Assembly (NCBI GenBank): GCA_944324665.1
Contig: CALUXD010000002.1
Location: 248,001-312,000 of the forward strand
Origin: Candidatus Proelusimicrobium volucris
GTDB taxonomy: Bacteria > Elusimicrobiota > Elusimicrobia > Elusimicrobiales > Elusimicrobiaceae
Direction of reading: 5' to 3'
Length of the DNA: 64,000 nucleotides
The notes beneath the pieces were generated by a model that saw nothing but the letters and a program-made list of their open reading frames with translations, was not told the DNA's origin and ran no database searches. Below are positions 49,760 through 60,801 of the stretch, piece by piece. A program made the translations under genes and the position numbers. Position 1 is the stretch's first letter; each line of letters begins with the position of its first letter.

Positions 49760-52258
49760 ATGTCAGAAGATAACAAAAAAAATCCTTTAAAACAGGAAGA
49801 GATACCTCCTATGGCGGCTAAGGCGGCATCGCAGGTGCCTTCTTCCGTACAAGCGAAGAATCAGCCTCATCAAAGACCGGAGATGGAACTTATAGGGCAG
49901 GAGATATCCGGCTGCGTGATACTTGAAAAGGTCAGCGAAGGCGGTATGGGTACGGTGTTCAGAGCCAAGCACAAGGCTCTGGACAGGATAGTCTGCGTAA
50001 AGATATTGAGCCCCGCATTGGCAAACGACAAAAAGGCAGTGGGACTGTTCTTGACGGAAGCGCGCGCCATCGCGGAGATAGACCACCCCAACATTGTATC
50101 GGTATACAATGTAGGCAAGGAAAAGGGATTTTATTTTATCGTCATGACGTTTATAGAGGGCGAGAGTTTATCTTCCATAGTAAGAAAGCGCCCCAATTTG
50201 CCGATTTCTTTTGTGATAGACACTTTTATCGGCATACTTAAAGGCCTTGAAGCGGCCCATCAAAAGGGTATAATACACCGCGATATAAAGCCGTCGAACA
50301 TACTTATCAATAAGAAACTTGAAGCGAAAATAGTGGACTTTGGTATCGCCAAGAAGGTGGATAAGGAAAAAGGTTGCACAAAAACGACGGAATTGGCTGG
50401 CACTGCGTACTTTTTATCGCCGGAACAGGCTTTGGGCAGACCGATAGACATAAGGGCTGATTTGTATTCTGTTGGCGCCAGTTTGTTTTACGTGTTAACT
50501 GGCAAGTACCCGTTTACCGGCAAGAACTCGATGGACATAATTCAAAAGCACATAAACGAGCCTGTGCCGGATGTTTCTAAATATAGGAAGGGCGTTCCGC
50601 CGTGGCTGTCTTTGGCGGTAAGCAAGTTGATGAGCAAGCGCCCGGACGACAGGTTCCAAAGCGCGACGGATACTTTAATGTTCTTCCAAAAGCAGCGCGC
50701 GGACGATCAACTGAAATTAAATCAAGGTTTGAACATAACCGACGAAGTGGGATTAAGGGTTAGAAGTTCGGATATGAATGCTTCGCCTGTCGTAGGCAAA
50801 GATACGGAGCGCCATGTTACGGCAAGCGGCAGCCAAATAAGGCAGAGCATGCCGGCTGCGTCTAATAATTCTTTTAGGGCGGCGGATATCCCTGTAATAG
50901 CATTAGGTGACGATGGAGAACCTGCAAAACAGCAGGCGGTGCCGGATAAAAAATTCCAGATGGATACCTTGGATTCCGTTACGAAAGAAGTCGCCAAGAC
51001 TCAAAAGATAATGGAAGAACGCAAAAAGCGTTTGGCGGCAAGCAAGAATCCTTATTCAACGTTCTCCGCGGCCAAGAAGAAATTTATGCTGAAAGGATTC
51101 GGCTGGACTCTGATAACCGCGGCCGCCGCGTTTATGGCGATGTCTTTATTTTTGAAGCTGGGCTTTTTGTGTTCGGCTTACAATACCGGCGCTACCTCCG
51201 TAATTTCGGCATTGATCAAGCCTTGGATTTCCGGTTCTTACGCGGAAGGCCAGATGATATTGGGGGCGGTATGTTTTGTATTTCTGCTCGTAATATTTGC
51301 ATTGTTCTTCTTTGATTTGATAAAGAAGGCGGTGCCATGTATATTGGTAATAGCGGTGCTTTCGTACATATTCGCGTTTTATGGATTTGTCCAACCCGAT
51401 TCGATATTGCAGCCGCTTTCGACAAACAGCTATTTACTGATATATTCGGTAATAGTCGGCGGATTGGCCCTGAAGATAGACAATATTGAGGATTTGCCTT
51501 TTTATTATAGGGTAGTATCAATAGTATTGTTTGTCTTTTCATTCTATCTGTTCTATCAATTTGTGCGGCCGGACATTTCTGCTGAAGGCGAATTGATGAA
51601 AACTTTGCGATATACGGCTTTTGGGGCCTCTGCGGTTACGTGTATTATGACTTTATTTAGGCACGGGTTTATATACAGAATGTTGACGCTGTTGCTTTTT
51701 GTCGCGTCATTTGGCGGGATATGGCTGTATCAATCTGGCGGAGAAGCTTATGCTCTATATGATGAAGTTAGAGCCAAGACTCAGGCGAAAACGGCGGAAC
51801 AGCCTGCCGATTATGCGGCCGTGCCGCACAAGATAGTGGAGCTAATGCACAGCTATGCGGATTTGGAGAGCGAGCCTGAATATTATGGTTTGGAAGGCGG
51901 CGCTTGGGATTTAGACGCTATGCCTGCGGAGAGAAACGTTCCCGCGGCGCAAGCGTCAGCGGAAAAGGCTTTGCCGAAAGGTGATAAAGCGGCAAGGGCT
52001 GAAGAGAGGGTTTCTCCCGCTCAGATCAGGGAAACGTTTATAAATTCGATAGTTAAATTAAATACGGCGGCAAACCAAGAAGCGGTGGAGCAGTATATAT
52101 GGATATTTGCTCTGAAAGGACCGTATGAAAAAGTAAAATATACTTGGAGTGAAGACAATATTCCGCTGTTAATACTGTATGTATTGGCAGTCTATGCGAT
52201 AGCGGGTTTTATAGTTGACGTGTTTGCTGCGGGGGAAGACAGATGGAATTTGATATAG
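49760..52258 (+). CDS. transmembrane Ser/Thr protein kinase
   Basis: This 832-residue Hanks-type kinase has its kinase domain at about 50-315: the glycine loop SEGGMGTV near 59-66, ATP-binding Lys81, HRDIKPSN near 173-180, DFGIAKK near 193 and SPEQALG, all intact. A linker (315-430) precedes about six membrane helices (430-650), a low-complexity segment and a final membrane helix near 800-822. No PASTA or known sensor domain is seen; the membrane part may sense the envelope state. The stop overlaps the PP2C gene start by 16 bases, so the kinase and phosphatase are a translationally coupled pair. Confidence 0.95.
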   Translation: MSEDNKKNPLKQEEIPPMAAKAASQVPSSVQAKNQPHQRPEMELIGQEISGCVILEKVSEGGMGTVFRAKHKALDRIVCVKILSPALANDKKAVGLFLTEARAIAEIDHPNIVSVYNVGKEKGFYFIVMTFIEGESLSSIVRKRPNLPISFVIDTFIGILKGLEAAHQKGIIHRDIKPSNILINKKLEAKIVDFGIAKKVDKEKGCTKTTELAGTAYFLSPEQALGRPIDIRADLYSVGASLFYVLTGKYPFTGKNSMDIIQKHINEPVPDVSKYRKGVPPWLSLAVSKLMSKRPDDRFQSATDTLMFFQKQRADDQLKLNQGLNITDEVGLRVRSSDMNASPVVGKDTERHVTASGSQIRQSMPAASNNSFRAADIPVIALGDDGEPAKQQAVPDKKFQMDTLDSVTKEVAKTQKIMEERKKRLAASKNPYSTFSAAKKKFMLKGFGWTLITAAAAFMAMSLFLKLGFLCSAYNTGATSVISALIKPWISGSYAEGQMILGAVCFVFLLVIFALFFFDLIKKAVPCILVIAVLSYIFAFYGFVQPDSILQPLSTNSYLLIYSVIVGGLALKIDNIEDLPFYYRVVSIVLFVFSFYLFYQFVRPDISAEGELMKTLRYTAFGASAVTCIMTLFRHGFIYRMLTLLLFVASFGGIWLYQSGGEAYALYDEVRAKTQAKTAEQPADYAAVPHKIVELMHSYADLESEPEYYGLEGGAWDLDAMPAERNVPAAQASAEKALPKGDKAARAEERVSPAQIRETFINSIVKLNTAANQEAVEQYIWIFALKGPYEKVKYTWSEDNIPLLILYVLAVYAIAGFIVDVFAAGEDRWNLI

Positions 52259-53058
52259 AGTTGGCCTCATACACCGACATAGGCAAGATAAGGGAAAAGA
52301 ACGAAGACAGCGTATTGATAGCGCCGGAATTGTGCCTTGGCGCGGTGGCCGACGGTATGGGCGGGCACAATGCGGGCGAAGTGGCGAGCAATTTGGCAGT
52401 ATCGATATTGAGGCAGACCTTATCCGATTTAAAGTCCAAAAAGATAAGCATACCGCAGGATTTCGAACCAAAGCTCGACCCCATAGCCAGGAAGTTATTA
52501 TACGCTTCGGGCTTGGCCAATTTAAGGATATACACTTTGTCTTCCGAAAATTACCGCCGCCGCGGCATGGGTACGACTTTAAGCGCTGTATATATAGAGC
52601 CGAACGCCAGCGCGGCCGTACACATAGGCGACAGTAGGATATACCGTCTTAGGGACGGCGTATTAAAACAGATTTCTAAAGACCACTCTTACGTACAGGA
52701 ACAGGTGGCGCGAGGGCTTATCAGCAAGGAACAGGCGGAGAAATCCAGAATACAGAACATTCTGACAAAAGCCTTGGGCCTTAAGAAAGATATGCGCTGC
52801 GACGTCATCAAACTTAACCCTCAGCCGGGCGACGTATATATGCTTTGCTCCGACGGGGTAAACAAGGGCATAAAAGACAGCGAGATAGAAGAGATCTTAA
52901 AGAAACCTCTCAGCGCGGGACGTTTATGCCAAGAAATCGTCAAGTTTTCCGCACACAACGACGGTAAAGACAATGTATCGTGCGTTGTATTCAAAATGCT
53001 TCCCAAAAAGGAAAAATCCATATTTAAAAAGCTGACGGGTTTTCTTAAAAATAATTAG
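52243..53058 (+). CDS. PP2C-type protein phosphatase
   Basis: This 271-residue cytosolic Mg/Mn-dependent phosphatase has the PP2C motifs: G-x-x-R-x-x-N-E-D near 12-22, ADGMGGHNAGE near 35, MGTT near 109, IGDSRIYRL near 127, and CSDGV and DNVSC near the C-terminus. A GGGGGAAGAC site precedes the ATG. It overlaps the Ser/Thr kinase gene and presumably reverses its phosphorylation. The last 15 residues are basic. Confidence 0.95.
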   Translation: MEFDIELASYTDIGKIREKNEDSVLIAPELCLGAVADGMGGHNAGEVASNLAVSILRQTLSDLKSKKISIPQDFEPKLDPIARKLLYASGLANLRIYTLSSENYRRRGMGTTLSAVYIEPNASAAVHIGDSRIYRLRDGVLKQISKDHSYVQEQVARGLISKEQAEKSRIQNILTKALGLKKDMRCDVIKLNPQPGDVYMLCSDGVNKGIKDSEIEEILKKPLSAGRLCQEIVKFSAHNDGKDNVSCVVFKMLPKKEKSIFKKLTGFLKNN

Positions 53059-55738: not shown

Positions 55739-57034
55739 TTATAAGGCGCTATAATTTTGATTAAAAAAGGATAACACCCGTTTATCGGTTTTAATATCGC
55801 TTATGCTCAGCGGTTTTTTTAGATATACGCCGCCAAGGGTTCTGGCTCTGCTAAGGGCGACATAAGTCTGCCCCGCGGCGAAAGCGCCTCTTCCGATATC
55901 CAGGCAAATTGAATCGAAGGTAAGGCCTTGGCTTTTGTGTATGGTAATGGCCCAAGCCAATTTTAAGGGATATTGAGTGAAAGTTCCTTTTACTACGGGT
56001 ATCAGTTTATTGCCTGCGGGGAGAGGTTCGTATTTTATTTCCTGCCAGGTATGGGGCTCTACGGAGTATACCGCGCCTCTTATGTTGACGCGGATATAAG
56101 AGGGCCCCAAATCTTCCACTGTGCCGATATCGCCGTTTACCCAATATTTATCGTTGGCGAGCATCATAATTTTGGCGCCTTTTTTTAAGGTAAGGAGCGG
56201 TTCGGCGGGGATAGTTTTTTTATTGAAATTTTCGCTTATTTCCGCTTGATACGAAAAACTTTCTCCAGATAATTGCGCCAGCATTAGTGCGTTTCTGTGT
56301 TGGGCGGTATAATTGGTGGCGGTGAGAGTGATGGCGGCTTGGCTTTGCGGAGCGCTAAGCGCATGCGTGGTATTTAGTTTTTCGTCCAGTTCGCTTTGCG
56401 TTATAGTTCCGGTGCGTATTTTATTGAGCAGTTCGGCGAAGTCTTCATCTTGGCTTTGGCGGAAATTATGTTTAAGTTCGATAACTTTCAGAGCGGTTTG
56501 CCCAAAGCAAAGCGCGTCAAAGAAATAAGGGCTTTTGTACAGCATATTGAAATAATTTAAGAAATTGGGGTCCTGCTCTTCAAGTACGGGCGGCAGTTGG
56601 CAGAGGTCGCCGCAGAGTATTATTTTTTTACCGCCGAAAGGGCGGGGATTGTCCGTAGATTTTTTAAGGATTAAATCTATTGCGTCCAATAGGTCAGCCC
56701 TGAGCATTGATGCTTCGTCGATAATAAGGATATCGAAAGCATTGGCCGTTTTTGCGGGCAGTTTTTTCAGCAGTTGCGGGTCAAGAAGATCATTCGGTTT
56801 TATTCTGAAGAAGGAGTGTATAGTCTGCCCGCCGAGGTTAAGCGCGGCTATGCCCGTAGGCGCGCAAAGCACGCAGCGCGCGGCGGTATGTTCCGCAAAG
56901 TATTTTAAGAGCGTAGTTTTGCCCGTACCCGCGCGCCCGGTGAGGAAAATACAGCTTTCCTTAGGGTCGTTTAAGGCGTTAAAGGTTTTTATAAAGGTAT
57001 CGTCAATGATATGATTTTCGTTTGATACGGGCAT
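55739..57034 (-). CDS. Pif1-like/RecD-type DNA helicase
   Basis: This 431-residue superfamily 1B helicase has Walker A GRAGTGKTT (33-41), Walker B LIIDEASML (about 103-111), motif III GDLCQLPP, and the C-terminal motifs WAITIHKSQGLTFD and YVALSRAR. It is short, without a nuclease or extra domains. Pif1-type enzymes unwind DNA 5' to 3' and clear G-quadruplexes and R-loops. No Shine-Dalgarno sequence; an extended -10 TGATATAAT lies 5 bases before the ATG. It is divergent from zupT. Confidence 0.93.
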   Translation of the reverse strand: MPVSNENHIIDDTFIKTFNALNDPKESCIFLTGRAGTGKTTLLKYFAEHTAARCVLCAPTGIAALNLGGQTIHSFFRIKPNDLLDPQLLKKLPAKTANAFDILIIDEASMLRADLLDAIDLILKKSTDNPRPFGGKKIILCGDLCQLPPVLEEQDPNFLNYFNMLYKSPYFFDALCFGQTALKVIELKHNFRQSQDEDFAELLNKIRTGTITQSELDEKLNTTHALSAPQSQAAITLTATNYTAQHRNALMLAQLSGESFSYQAEISENFNKKTIPAEPLLTLKKGAKIMMLANDKYWVNGDIGTVEDLGPSYIRVNIRGAVYSVEPHTWQEIKYEPLPAGNKLIPVVKGTFTQYPLKLAWAITIHKSQGLTFDSICLDIGRGAFAAGQTYVALSRARTLGGVYLKKPLSISDIKTDKRVLSFFNQNYSAL

Positions 57035-57066: not shown

Positions 57067-57840
57067 ATGAACGGCAATATATTATCGGCTTTGGGATTAA
57101 GTTTTCTTGCGGGCGCGGCGACGAGTATCGGCGCGCTTTTGGCTTTTTTTGTCAAGAAAGACAATTTCAAGTTTTTGGCGCTGGGCTTGGGTTTTTCCGC
57201 GGGCGTAATGATTTACGTTTCCTTTATGGAGATACTGCCCCAAGCACAGATTTCGCTTACGGGCGTTGTGGGATACAAGGCTGCGGGCTGGGCGGCGATA
57301 GGCGCGTTTTTTTGCGGGATAGTGATAGCCTCTTTGATAGACACCTGCCTGCCGGATCATCATTTGGACAACAATTCCCTGTCGAAGGAAAACAAACTTA
57401 AGCATTTGGGCATTTTTACGGCTTTGGCTTTGGCTTTGCATAATTTCCCCGAGGGTCTGGCCACGTTTATGGCGGCGATGGAAAGCCCCGCTTTGGGCAT
57501 ATCGATAGCGATAGCGGTGGCGGTACACAATATTCCCGAAGGCATAGCGGTGGCTTTGCCGGTATACCACGCCACGGGCAGCAGAAAGATGGCGTTTTGG
57601 TATTCTACTCTTTCCGGTATGGCGGAGCCTTTGGGCGCGATAGTGGGATTTATATTTTTGAGGGCTTTGCTTCATGAGGCGGCCTTCGGCGTGCTGTTTG
57701 CGTTGATAGCGGGTATAATGGTATACATTTCTTTGGACGAGCTTCTTCCCACGGCACACGAGTATGGCGAGCCGCATAAGGTTATTTGGGGCGTAGTCGG
57801 CGGAATGATGATAATGGCCATAAGCCTGCAAATGCTTTAA
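57067..57840 (+). CDS. zupT: ZupT-type ZIP zinc transporter
   Basis: This 257-residue inner-membrane ZIP-family importer (zinc, possibly iron or manganese) has eight membrane segments and the two metal-site motifs HNFPEG (near 125) and HNIPEG (near 154). I chose the ATG at 57067; the frame is open further upstream, but that part lies inside the divergent helicase gene. It is followed after 25 bases by the sensory hydrogenase gene, so zupT probably leads that operon. Confidence 0.92.
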   Translation: MNGNILSALGLSFLAGAATSIGALLAFFVKKDNFKFLALGLGFSAGVMIYVSFMEILPQAQISLTGVVGYKAAGWAAIGAFFCGIVIASLIDTCLPDHHLDNNSLSKENKLKHLGIFTALALALHNFPEGLATFMAAMESPALGISIAIAVAVHNIPEGIAVALPVYHATGSRKMAFWYSTLSGMAEPLGAIVGFIFLRALLHEAAFGVLFALIAGIMVYISLDELLPTAHEYGEPHKVIWGVVGGMMIMAISLQML

Positions 57841-57865
57841 AATTTTATTTACGGCGGGTTTGGAA

Positions 57866-59569
57866 ATGAAAAAGAATTATCCGATTTATACGATAAAGCA
57901 GGAATGTCAGGATTGTTATAAATGCGTACGGGCCTGCCCCGTTAAGGCTATACGGGTGGAAGAAGGTCACGCGGCGGTAATAGCGGAAAATTGCGTCGCC
58001 TGCGGTATGTGCTATACCGTCTGCCCGACGCACGCCAAACACGTAAGGAGCGATATAGAGAAAGCCAAGAGTTTGATAGGCTCTGGCGCTAAGGTATATG
58101 CCTCGGTGGCGCCGAGCTGGGCGGGCATATTGGATTGCAGCGTCAGCAGATTGGTGGGAATGTTAAAGAAGCTGGGCTTTGCCGGGGTGAGCGAAACGGC
58201 TTTGGGCGCACAGCAAGTATCTGCGGTGACGGCCGAGTTTTTAAATCAAGCCGAGCCGGGGGTATATTTTTCTTCGGCCTGCCCAGTCTGCGTGGACTAT
58301 ATCAGCCGCTATACGCCGGAGCTTAAAAAATACATAGTGCCTTATTCTTCGCCCGCATTGACGCATGCCGAACTCTTGAAAAAGACTTTTGGCGAAGATA
58401 TAAAAGTCGTATTTATAGGCCCTTGCATAGCCAAGAAGAACGAATCGGACACGCAAGAAGATTTGATAGCCGCGGCAATAACTTTCGAGGAACTTAAAAA
58501 ATGGCTTTTTGAGGAAGGCATTGATTTGCTTAATTCGCCGCAAAGCAGTGAGGGCTTTGTGCCTGAAAAATCGTCTGACGGCGCGGTCTATCCGCTTGAA
58601 GGTGGCATGCTCCGCTCCATAAGGCGCAACGGCCTTAAAGATGGCGTAAAGCTAATTACGGTAACGGGCTTAAAGAATTTCTGCAAGACTTTGCAAGCTC
58701 TCAAGGAGCAGAATATAGACAGAGTCTGTTTTGTGGAATGTCTGGCCTGCGAGGGTGGCTGCATAAAAGGGCCTTGCCCGGGCGGGGAGGTATCAACGCT
58801 TAACGCTTTCTTGGGTGTGGAAAAGCAATTTGACGAAAGTATCCCGCCCGTCAAGCAGGCCAAGTATAAAGTGCCGCTTGTTTTCGGCGGGGCAGTTGCG
58901 CCGGAAAAGAAATTTACGGAAGAGGAAATTTTATCTGCTTTGGCCAAAGTCGGCAAGTTTACGGCCGACGACGAGATAAACTGCGACGGCTGCGGTTACA
59001 ATACCTGCCGCAATTTCGCGCACGCTCTATTGGAGGGCAAGGCCGAACCGGCGATGTGCGTATCTTATATGCGCAAGCGAGCCAGCCGCAAAGCCAATGC
59101 CATTTTAAGGTGCATACCTTCGGGCGTGGTTATATTCGATAATAATTTGGAAATTATAGAATCCAATCAGCCCTTTGCCAAAATAGCGGGCGCCGACATT
59201 GAAGAACTTTTTGAGCAAATCCCCGGCCTTAAAGGTGCGGCTTTGGGTAAAATTCTGCCTTTTGAGATGATATTCAAACGCATCTTTAAAGACGGCAAAG
59301 AGATACATAAAGAACGTATCCCGTTTGGCAAGAAACTGCTGGATATGACGATATTCCCGATAGAGGAAGGGCAAACTGCGGGGCTTATAGTGCAGGACGT
59401 TACCAAGAGTGAGCTGCATAGGGAAATTATCGCTCAAAAAGCGCAGGAAGTTCTGCGCAAGAATATTTTGGCCGTTCAAGAAGTCGCGGGCAGGCTGGGC
59501 GAGAACATAGCCGAGACCGAAATAATCTTGAATTATATTACCGAAGGCTTTGGCCCGGAGAAGAAATAA
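57866..59569 (+). CDS. sensory [FeFe] hydrogenase (HydS-like) with PAS domain
   Basis: This 567-residue cytosolic protein carries two [4Fe-4S] ferredoxin motifs (Cys14-17-20-24 and Cys43-46-49-53), then the H-cluster domain. L1 is FSSACPVC with Cys139; L2 is IGPCIAKK with Cys187; L3 is ECLACEGGC with Cys295 and Cys299. The proton-transfer Cys of catalytic enzymes (TSCCP) is Ala138 here and the L2 Met is Gly, changes known from sensory (group C) hydrogenases. A further Fe-S segment (CDGCGYNTC, then C in PAMC) near 375-405 and a PAS domain (about 415-520) follow. It probably senses H2 or redox state and signals to the SpoIIE phosphatase encoded 2 bases downstream. Confidence 0.93.
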   Translation: MKKNYPIYTIKQECQDCYKCVRACPVKAIRVEEGHAAVIAENCVACGMCYTVCPTHAKHVRSDIEKAKSLIGSGAKVYASVAPSWAGILDCSVSRLVGMLKKLGFAGVSETALGAQQVSAVTAEFLNQAEPGVYFSSACPVCVDYISRYTPELKKYIVPYSSPALTHAELLKKTFGEDIKVVFIGPCIAKKNESDTQEDLIAAAITFEELKKWLFEEGIDLLNSPQSSEGFVPEKSSDGAVYPLEGGMLRSIRRNGLKDGVKLITVTGLKNFCKTLQALKEQNIDRVCFVECLACEGGCIKGPCPGGEVSTLNAFLGVEKQFDESIPPVKQAKYKVPLVFGGAVAPEKKFTEEEILSALAKVGKFTADDEINCDGCGYNTCRNFAHALLEGKAEPAMCVSYMRKRASRKANAILRCIPSGVVIFDNNLEIIESNQPFAKIAGADIEELFEQIPGLKGAALGKILPFEMIFKRIFKDGKEIHKERIPFGKKLLDMTIFPIEEGQTAGLIVQDVTKSELHREIIAQKAQEVLRKNILAVQEVAGRLGENIAETEIILNYITEGFGPEKK

Positions 59570-59571
59570 TT

Positions 59572-60738
59572 ATGCCGCCATTCGCTTTTGATATAGATTA
59601 CTATCAAGTTTTTAAGAACGGGCAGCACGTCTGCGGCGATACTTTTATGACCGCGCGCGGCGCCGACGGCAGGATAATAGCGGTTCTTTCCGACGGGCTT
59701 GGCAGCGGGGTAAAGGCCAATATTCTTTCTACGATGACGGCGAAAATGGCCTTAAAATTCGTTGACGCCAATTGGGACGTAAAAAAATACTGCGAGGTAA
59801 TTTCCAGCGTATTGCCTATATGCAAGGAGCGCGGGCTTAATTATTCCACCTTCACCATTTTGGATTTGTCGCCCGAAGGGCAGGTTCGTATTTTTGAACA
59901 GGGCAATCCTTCTTTTCTCTTTATAAGAAACGGCCGCCTGATAGAACCTGACGCGAGAAGAGTATCGGAAGAATACCATAATCTGCCTATAAGCACAACC
60001 ACGCTTGACCTGATGAGAGAGGATAGAATAATATTTTTCTCGGACGGAATCAGCCAAGCGGGCACCGGTACGCCCGAATATCCTAACGGGTGGGGGCGTT
60101 CGGGCGCGGCGGATTTGGCTTTAAAAGTTATAGGCAGGAACCCGCAGGTATCAAGCCTGAAAATTTGCGAAACGATTATCCGCGAAGCACGCATAAAAGA
60201 CGGGCCGATAAACCCAAAAGACGACGTTACCTGCGCGGCGGTCTATCTAAGAACGCCAAGGCGCGTTATGGTGTTTTCGGGGCCGCCGTTTAATAAGAGT
60301 TTGGACGGCAAATACGCCAAGGAACTTGCCGCTTTTGACGGGCAGAAGGTAATTTGCGGCGGCACTACGGCAAAGATAGTGGCCAGGGAATTGGGGCTGG
60401 AAGTAAGGCCCGATTTGAATTCTTCTTCCCGTTTCGGCCCGCCGACAAGCCTGCTCGAAGGCATAGACTTGGTGACGGAAGGCGTTTTGACTTTAAGCCA
60501 AGTGCTTTTGGCTTTGCAAAGCCACAAAGCGCCGCAAAGCGAGAGCGGGGCCTATAAATTGTATTATACCTTGCTTGAGAACGACTATATCGATATTGTG
60601 GCCGGTACCAGAATAAACGACGCTTATCAAGATCCGAACTTCCCCAATCAGTTTGTTTTGAGGCGTTCCGTACTTGAGGGTATCGTAAAGATTTTAAGGG
60701 AAAAGTACTTCAAGGAAGTCAATTTAAAACTTGTTTGA
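59572..60738 (+). CDS. SpoIIE-type serine phosphatase, partner of the sensory hydrogenase
   Basis: This 388-residue protein has a SpoIIE/PP2C catalytic domain in its first 225 residues: GDTFMTAR near 22, LSDGLGSG near 39-46, FSDGI near 150 and PKDDVTCAAV near 217. The C-terminal 150 residues (GGTTAKIVARELGLEV, GIDLVTEGVLTL) form a second domain common in hydrogenase-linked SpoIIE proteins, function unclear. It has no membrane segment. Linked genes for group C hydrogenases and such phosphatases are known; the output target here is not visible. It ends the zupT operon. Confidence 0.9.
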   Translation: MPPFAFDIDYYQVFKNGQHVCGDTFMTARGADGRIIAVLSDGLGSGVKANILSTMTAKMALKFVDANWDVKKYCEVISSVLPICKERGLNYSTFTILDLSPEGQVRIFEQGNPSFLFIRNGRLIEPDARRVSEEYHNLPISTTTLDLMREDRIIFFSDGISQAGTGTPEYPNGWGRSGAADLALKVIGRNPQVSSLKICETIIREARIKDGPINPKDDVTCAAVYLRTPRRVMVFSGPPFNKSLDGKYAKELAAFDGQKVICGGTTAKIVARELGLEVRPDLNSSSRFGPPTSLLEGIDLVTEGVLTLSQVLLALQSHKAPQSESGAYKLYYTLLENDYIDIVAGTRINDAYQDPNFPNQFVLRRSVLEGIVKILREKYFKEVNLKLV

Positions 60739-60770: not shown

Positions 60771-60801
60771 AACCGTACGATTAATTTTCGTACGGTTTTT
60801 C
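60771..60801 (+). terminator. intrinsic terminator
   Basis: The 10-bp arms 60771-60780 and 60788-60797 are followed by five T. It follows the SpoIIE gene by 32 bases. Confidence 0.88.

What the first reader, a model, noticed from the sequence alone, without database searches (positions are those of the whole stretch)
57067..60738. Operon of zinc importer, sensory [FeFe] hydrogenase and SpoIIE phosphatase
The hydrogenase has a PAS domain, and Ala replaces the proton-transfer Cys next to Cys139, as in the sensory (group C) enzymes. The phosphatase starts 2 bases after it. This looks like an H2- or redox-sensing switch acting by protein dephosphorylation. The zupT gene 25 bases upstream is an unusual partner; a metal uptake gene could be co-regulated for enzyme maturation or stress. 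No kinase or anti-sigma target is adjacent.
Basis: partly seen in the sequence, partly recalled or inferred. Interest (0 to 1): 0.6.

Follow-up and report, generated by a model that had tools for sequence, protein, structure and literature searches.

The report
Hydrogen-sensor and phosphatase gene pair
A gut bacterium carries a protein that probably senses hydrogen gas and controls a partner enzyme that removes phosphates; this pair is a known kind that passes between unrelated gut bacteria, and here it has lost its usual hydrogenase neighbours and sits behind a metal-uptake gene that none of the 79 relatives from outside its genus has.

Summary
The hydrogenase-phosphatase pair is a member of a described kind: HydDB group C3 'phosphatase-linked', the hfsBC part of the clostridial hfsABCD operon. 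spoIIE directly follows hydS in 79 of 80 homologous loci (the 80th is cut by its contig end), while zupT occurs only in this genus. The sequence clusters with gut Gastranaerophilales, Desulfovibrio and rumen Proteobacteria, not with its own family, so it was acquired horizontally. It lacks the [2Fe-2S] protein (HfsA) and hydrogenase (HfsD) usually beside it; an adhE-rex-group-B-hydrogenase operon lies about 120 kb away. The nearly complete genome has no detectable STAS protein and no convincing RsbW, so the textbook anti-sigma output is unlikely. HydS and Rex co-occur (10/10 HydS+ versus 5/21 HydS- genomes), pointing to fermentation/redox control. New details: a C-terminal helix motif QxIAxxLGE in 85/85 phosphatase-linked sensors and 0/29 other hydrogenases examined, and an uncharacterised phosphatase C-terminal domain. 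H2 sensing, the phosphorylated target and any role of zupT are unproven.

The parts
55739..57034 (-). PIF1/RecD-like helicase, divergent neighbour; stays beside zupT in all four genomes with hydS and in one congener without it
57067..57840 (+). zupT, ZIP-family metal importer (NF003243); same strand, 25 bp before hydS
57866..59569 (+). hydS (hfsB-like): PAS-containing sensory [FeFe] hydrogenase, 567 aa (ATG start; the ORF list gives a TTG at 57860)
57905..58024 (+). N-terminal two-[4Fe-4S] ferredoxin domain (C14,C17,C20,C24,C43,C46,C49,C53)
58091..58774 (+). H-domain (Fe_hyd_lg_C); H-cluster Cys139, 187, 295, 299 invariant in 45 homologues; Gly185 at the Met353 position
58277..58282 (+). Ala138-Cys139: Ala in place of the proton-transfer Cys (Ala in 35/45 homologues, Cys in 7/45)
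58982..59059 (+). C-terminal cluster motif Cx2Cx4Cx16C (C373-C398), mark of the sensory groups C/D
   Evidence: motif described in PMC8163306
59099..59398 (+). PAS domain (about residues 412-511)
59402..59548 (+). C-terminal helical tail (helices 513-543 and 548-561) with motif QxIAxxLGE (Q538-E546, 59477-59503), proposed phosphatase-coupling element
59572..60738 (+). SpoIIE-type PP2C serine/threonine phosphatase, 388 aa (hfsC-like)
59572..60255 (+). PP2C catalytic domain, residues 1-228; acidic motif residues D23, D41, D158, D217, D218 conserved; no N-terminal regulatory linker
60256..60735 (+). C-terminal alpha/beta domain of the phosphatase, residues 229-388: conserved in the family, no Pfam or PDB relative found
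60771..60797 (+). intrinsic terminator (10-bp stem, T tail) ending the operon before yajC

Best explanation
This is a horizontally acquired, stand-alone copy of the phosphatase-linked (group C3, hfsBC) H2/redox sensor. Shown by sequence: a sensory-type [FeFe] hydrogenase with H-cluster ligands, N- and C-terminal Fe-S clusters, a PAS domain and a conserved C-terminal helix, stably paired with a PP2C phosphatase that keeps its catalytic acids. Inferred: H2 or the redox state changes the H-cluster or relay clusters; the PAS domain passes this to the C-terminal helix; the helix acts in trans on the phosphatase, which lacks a regulatory linker of its own, much as coiled-coil linkers do in cis in RsbP and RsbU. 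The phosphatase then dephosphorylates a Ser/Thr-phosphoprotein that is not a STAS anti-anti-sigma factor, and the outcome is adjustment of fermentative H2/ethanol metabolism, most likely through the adhE-rex-group-B-hydrogenase operon elsewhere in the genome, alongside Rex. zupT is most likely an older resident gene behind which the pair was placed.
For: Domain and motif content. Tree: inside the phosphatase-linked sensory set, apart from catalytic groups A+B (support 100) and from HisKA-fused C1 enzymes (100). spoIIE directly downstream in 79/80 loci found with hydS alone, the exception being cut by its contig end; mirror-tree r = 0.87 against a shuffled maximum of 0.29. Tail motif in 85/85 phosphatase-linked, 0/9 C1, 0/10 A and 0/10 B sequences. 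Relatives place hydS-spoIIE in one operon with rex, adhE and a group B hydrogenase. The own genome has adhE-rex-group B as one cluster at about C2:182-187 kb. HydS+ genomes all have Rex (10/10 against 5/21 of HydS-; Fisher 7e-5, phylogeny not corrected), while AdhE shows no such association. HydF maturase present. Literature: deletion of hfsB, or hfsA, in T. saccharolyticum raises adhE transcript and ethanol (PMC5707799); the R. albus hydS-adhE-hydA cluster is 111-fold lower in co-culture, a change the authors attribute to H2 level (PMC6776011); coiled-coil linker control of PPM phosphatases (PMC12143880).
Against: No phosphorylated substrate or cognate kinase was identified. The HfsA-like [2Fe-2S] protein usually upstream is missing here, so the electron or signal route may differ. 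No Rex-like sites were found at either locus with a clostridial consensus. The resident group B hydrogenase is most similar to family members, not to the donor operons, so the two loci were not simply one imported operon later split. Rex/HydS co-occurrence is partly shared ancestry or operon linkage. In the group D enzyme TamHydS the C-terminal cluster is not reduced by H2 (PMC13104023), so the internal relay is uncertain.
Confidence: 0.6

Rival explanations
1. Classical partner switching: the phosphatase dephosphorylates a STAS anti-anti-sigma factor held by an RsbW-type kinase, releasing an alternative sigma factor when H2 is sensed.
For: The catalytic domain is closest to SpoIIE/RsbU/RsbX structures, and the known substrates of that family are STAS proteins (PMC11418112).
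Against: No STAS or STAS_2 match in the 99.7%-complete genome or in G007 and G011, while the same searches ring in controls and in G074. HATPase_c_2 matches are only sub-cut-off hits in 371- and 628-codon frames. This is the only SpoIIE phosphatase of the genome.
Confidence: 0.1
2. zupT-hydS-spoIIE is a functional operon: ZupT supplies Fe/Zn/Mn for the metal-rich sensor and the Mn/Mg-dependent phosphatase, or metal uptake is itself the regulated output.
For: 25-bp gap with no terminator between them; zupT stays with hydS-spoIIE in four species, including G017, whose downstream flank differs (gapA-pgk instead of yajC-secD).
Against: zupT is near hydS in no locus outside the genus; the divergent helicase is retained just as faithfully; a congener without hydS has the helicase/zupT pair alone, and zupT occurs in other congeners without hydS.
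Confidence: 0.15
3. The hydrogenase is a low-rate catalytic enzyme in redox balancing and the phosphatase pairing is incidental.
For: H-cluster ligands are complete and characterised sensory enzymes do turn over H2 (PMC10055695, PMC8163306).
Against: Phylogeny apart from groups A and B; PAS and tail; near-universal phosphatase adjacency; loss of the proton-transfer Cys and both Met positions. Separate catalytic group A and group B enzymes exist in the genome.
Confidence: 0.1
4. An orphaned, decaying leftover of an hfs operon with no present function.
For: hfsA and hfsD are missing from the locus.
Against: Intact ORFs in four species, 90-99% identical proteins, all cofactor and catalytic residues kept, terminator present.
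Confidence: 0.07

Closest known systems
[FeFe] hydrogenase group C3 'phosphatase-linked (putative)' of HydDB (PMC5037454)
   Same: H-domain with altered pocket, extra C-terminal cluster motif, PAS domain, serine/threonine phosphatase next to it
   Different: Placed here by own tree, motifs and gene context; the HydDB classifier could not be run
hfsABCD operon of Thermoanaerobacterium (PMC5707799, PMC11837493)
   Same: HfsB = PAS-containing sensor, HfsC = serine phosphatase, in that order
   Different: No hfsA-like [2Fe-2S] gene and no hfsD hydrogenase in the locus; zupT upstream; adhE-rex-group-B-hydrogenase operon separate
Ruminococcus albus hydS/hydA2/adhE cluster (PMC6776011)
   Same: Group C sensor with PAS and a Ser/Thr phosphatase, thought to regulate adhE and a ferredoxin hydrogenase
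   Different: There the sensor lies in the same cluster as its presumed targets
TmHydS of Thermotoga maritima (PMC10055695)
   Same: Ala at the C299 position, Gly at the M353 position, PAS domain
   Different: That paper treats the enzyme's chemistry; phosphatase coupling is not tested there
RsbP/RsbU PPM phosphatases (PMC12143880, PMC3183031)
   Same: PAS/helical-linker signal controlling a PPM phosphatase domain
   Different: Linker and sensor are on a separate polypeptide here, no STAS substrate, extra C-terminal phosphatase domain

Membership tests
Group C (sensory) [FeFe] hydrogenase | Four H-cluster cysteines in the H-domain | tested here: met
   C139, C187, C295, C299 invariant in 45 homologues
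Group C (sensory) [FeFe] hydrogenase | Proton-transfer Cys and pocket Met residues replaced | tested here: met
   Ala138, Gly185, Leu at the M497 position
Group C (sensory) [FeFe] hydrogenase | C-terminal Cx2Cx4Cx16C cluster followed by PAS | tested here: met
   C373-C398 and FeS domain PF04060; PAS by homologues and model
Group C (sensory) [FeFe] hydrogenase | Phylogenetic place outside catalytic groups A and B | tested here: met
   A+B form a clade with support 100 that excludes it, apart from two long-branch group A rows
HydDB subgroup C3 (phosphatase-linked) | Ser/Thr phosphatase gene directly linked | tested here: met
   2-bp gap here; 79/80 homologous loci
HydDB subgroup C3 (phosphatase-linked) | Assignment by the HydDB classifier itself | not testable with these tools
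   no access
HydDB subgroup C3 (phosphatase-linked) | Actual H2 sensing | not testable with these tools
   biochemistry needed
hfsABCD operon | hfsB and hfsC adjacent in that order | tested here: met
hfsABCD operon | small [2Fe-2S] protein (hfsA) upstream | tested here: not met
   absent from the locus; only the NuoE and NuoF-type subunits match elsewhere in the genome, although at least 55/75 relatives have it
hfsABCD operon | catalytic hydrogenase (hfsD) downstream | tested here: not met
   terminator and yajC follow; hydrogenases at C2:182 kb and C2:198 kb
SpoIIE/RsbU partner-switching system | PP2C fold with catalytic acids | tested here: met
SpoIIE/RsbU partner-switching system | STAS anti-anti-sigma substrate in the genome | tested here: not met
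SpoIIE/RsbU partner-switching system | RsbW/SpoIIAB-type kinase | tested here: not met
   only sub-cut-off HATPase_c_2 hits
ZupT zinc transporter | NCBIfam equivalog NF003243 above cut-off | tested here: met
   341 against 252 bits; metal specificity not tested

The most novel reading that the evidence does not exclude
A detachable-linker mechanism: the PAS domain and conserved C-terminal helix (QxIAxxLGE) of a hydrogen-sensing hydrogenase act in trans as the regulatory linker of a PP2C phosphatase that lacks one, and the phosphatase, through its uncharacterised C-terminal domain, acts on a non-STAS phosphoprotein to set fermentative H2/ethanol output together with Rex. That would give an anti-sigma-free branch of SpoIIE-type signalling.
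Probability: 0.3. Interest if true: 0.6.

Novelty: new member of a known kind. Interest (0 to 1): 0.3.

Why it matters
How group C [FeFe] hydrogenases pass on an H2 signal is open: PAS is assumed, the C-terminal cluster has been questioned, and no substrate of the linked phosphatase was found in the papers read. This copy is a minimal natural version (sensor and phosphatase only) in a small genome without detectable STAS proteins, which narrows the search for the substrate and makes one short conserved helix a concrete mutational target. It also shows the pair spreading between gut phyla as a two-gene unit. As a find it is otherwise ordinary.

Tried and rejected
(1) Tail helix as a degenerate histidine-kinase DHp helix, suggested by eye from Q..A...HE versus Q..A...GE: hhalign of the tail profile with the HisKA region of the C1 enzymes scored 6.4, at the bottom of 30 column-shuffled controls (6.4-15.3); only 2 C1 sequences went into that profile. 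Rejected. (2) HydS-SpoIIE fusion in L138 (946-aa ORF): a frame artefact; tblastn shows two separate genes. (3) Apparent lack of spoIIE in several loci: caused by longer antisense ORFs in the gene picker; tblastn restored it. (4) adhE-rex-group-B as the split-off other half of the imported operon: the resident group B enzyme is most similar to family members (72% G015, 59% E. minutum-like) and only 46-48% to donor-type operons. (5) Rex-type operators at the zupT or adhE loci: nothing above chance. (6) A homologue of the E. minutum-like APH/RIO kinase as counter-kinase: not found in 30 relatives or the own genome, though the search had no positive control. (7) Fold or sequence relatives of the phosphatase C-terminal domain: only PP2C matches for the whole model, and insignificant LpoB matches (E about 0.1) for the domain profile.
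Full report
What is there. Three same-strand genes, zupT (57067-57840), hydS (57866-59569) and spoIIE (59572-60738), lie between a divergent PIF1-like helicase and the yajC-secD-secF cluster. Gaps are 25 and 2 bp. A terminator hairpin (60771-60797, z = -4.3) closes the unit. Between zupT and hydS there are only chance-level promoter matches, so co-transcription is plausible but not shown.

The hydrogenase. It carries two N-terminal [4Fe-4S] motifs, an H-domain with all four H-cluster cysteines, Ala138 before Cys139, Gly185 where catalytic enzymes have Met353, the sensory Cx2Cx4Cx16C motif, a PAS domain and a C-terminal helical tail. In the literature Ala is the commonest residue (about 43%) and Cys occurs in 17% at this position in sensory enzymes, with Gly at the Met353 position in about 51% (PMC10055695). 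In the tree of 114 sequences it lies with PAS/phosphatase-linked enzymes. The catalytic groups A and B form their own clade (100), except two long-branch group A rows that fall at the root, and the HisKA-fused C1 enzymes form another (100).

The pair. Searching with hydS alone gave 80 named loci from many phyla. spoIIE follows hydS in 79, and in the other the contig ends about 210 bp after hydS. The two proteins' distance matrices correlate at r = 0.87. Typical neighbours are a 75-100-aa thioredoxin-like [2Fe-2S] protein upstream (at least 55/75; PF01257), a similar one downstream (36/75), a group B hydrogenase (34/75), a bifurcating trimer (17/75), Rex (19/75) and AdhE (11/75) (lower bounds because contigs end). 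Only the congener's own locus has zupT. This is HydDB C3 and hfsABC(D) (PMC5037454, PMC11837493).

Origin. The closest sequences from outside the genus are about 50% identical and come from Gastranaerophilales and rumen MAGs. Other Elusimicrobia carry two different, more distant types (32-37% identity): one behind rex-nuoE-nuoF-hydA, and one in the E. minutum-like genome in the order rex-adhE-kinase-hfsA-hydS-spoIIE-group B. The window type occurs in four congeners (90-99% identical) and is absent from the others searched. A congener without hydS keeps helicase/zupT at the corresponding place. Transfer into the genus, behind zupT, is the simplest reading. The identification of G018 as E. minutum rests on its single 1,643,562-bp contig and my memory of that genome's size.

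Output. The own genome (99.7% complete) has one SpoIIE phosphatase, no STAS and no STAS_2. Its HATPase_c_2 matches are all below the cut-off. The search is profile-based, so a very divergent STAS protein could be missed. The four window-type genomes all have an adhE-rex-group-B-hydrogenase cluster elsewhere. Across 31 family genomes Rex is in 10/10 with HydS and 5/21 without (p = 7e-5), while AdhE shows no association (p = 0.69). These p-values ignore phylogeny, and for the other two HydS types Rex lies close to hydS, so linkage explains part of it. Genetic work on hfs points the same way: deleting hfsA or hfsB raises adhE transcript two- to threefold (PMC5707799).

Coupling. The PAS-to-C-terminus helix contains QxIAxxLGE in all 85 phosphatase-linked sensors and in none of 29 catalytic or kinase-fused enzymes. 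Its columns are as conserved (0.65) as the C-terminal cluster domain (0.68) and more than PAS (0.44). The loci were picked with an alignment that includes the tail, which favours sequences that have it. The phosphatase begins directly with its PP2C domain. In RsbP and RsbU a PAS or other sensor drives the phosphatase through a helical linker in the same chain (PMC12143880); here the equivalent helix would be on the sensor. This is inference. The AF2 tail has low confidence (pLDDT 56-70), as expected for a segment that needs a partner, which does not prove one. The phosphatase also has a well-modelled C-terminal domain with no known relative.

Verdict. The zupT link is local, and the anti-sigma expectation is not met in this genome. 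The remaining interest is the minimal, STAS-free setting and the two uncharacterised elements (tail helix and phosphatase C-terminal domain).

Noticed in passing
window 49760-53058: An 832-aa Hanks-type Ser/Thr kinase with a hydrophobic C-terminal half overlaps a PP2C phosphatase gene, same strand, about 4 kb upstream of zupT and before groES/groEL; a possible but untested source of Ser/Thr phosphorylation for the SpoIIE phosphatase.
   Followed up: partly
L082:10017-10766 (-): In the E. minutum-like genome an APH/RIO-like kinase gene sits between adhE and the hfsA-hydS-spoIIE set; candidate counter-kinase, with no homologue found in 30 relatives.
   Followed up: partly
window 60256-60735: The C-terminal domain of hydrogenase-linked SpoIIE phosphatases (motifs GPP and CGGTT...EG) has no Pfam family and no PDB sequence relative.
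   Followed up: partly
L142:7986-15545: A Riflebacteria MAG carries two divergent hydS-spoIIE pairs in one cluster with a bifurcating-type and a group B hydrogenase.
   Followed up: no
L078:7889-8482: zupT of congener G004, beside the same divergent helicase, is cut to 197 aa, apparently by a frameshift or truncation.
   Followed up: no
L015, L033 and related loci: In the sister family of the order the sensor is instead a hydrogenase fused directly to HisKA-HATPase without PAS, behind a group A hydrogenase and before response regulators.
   Followed up: partly
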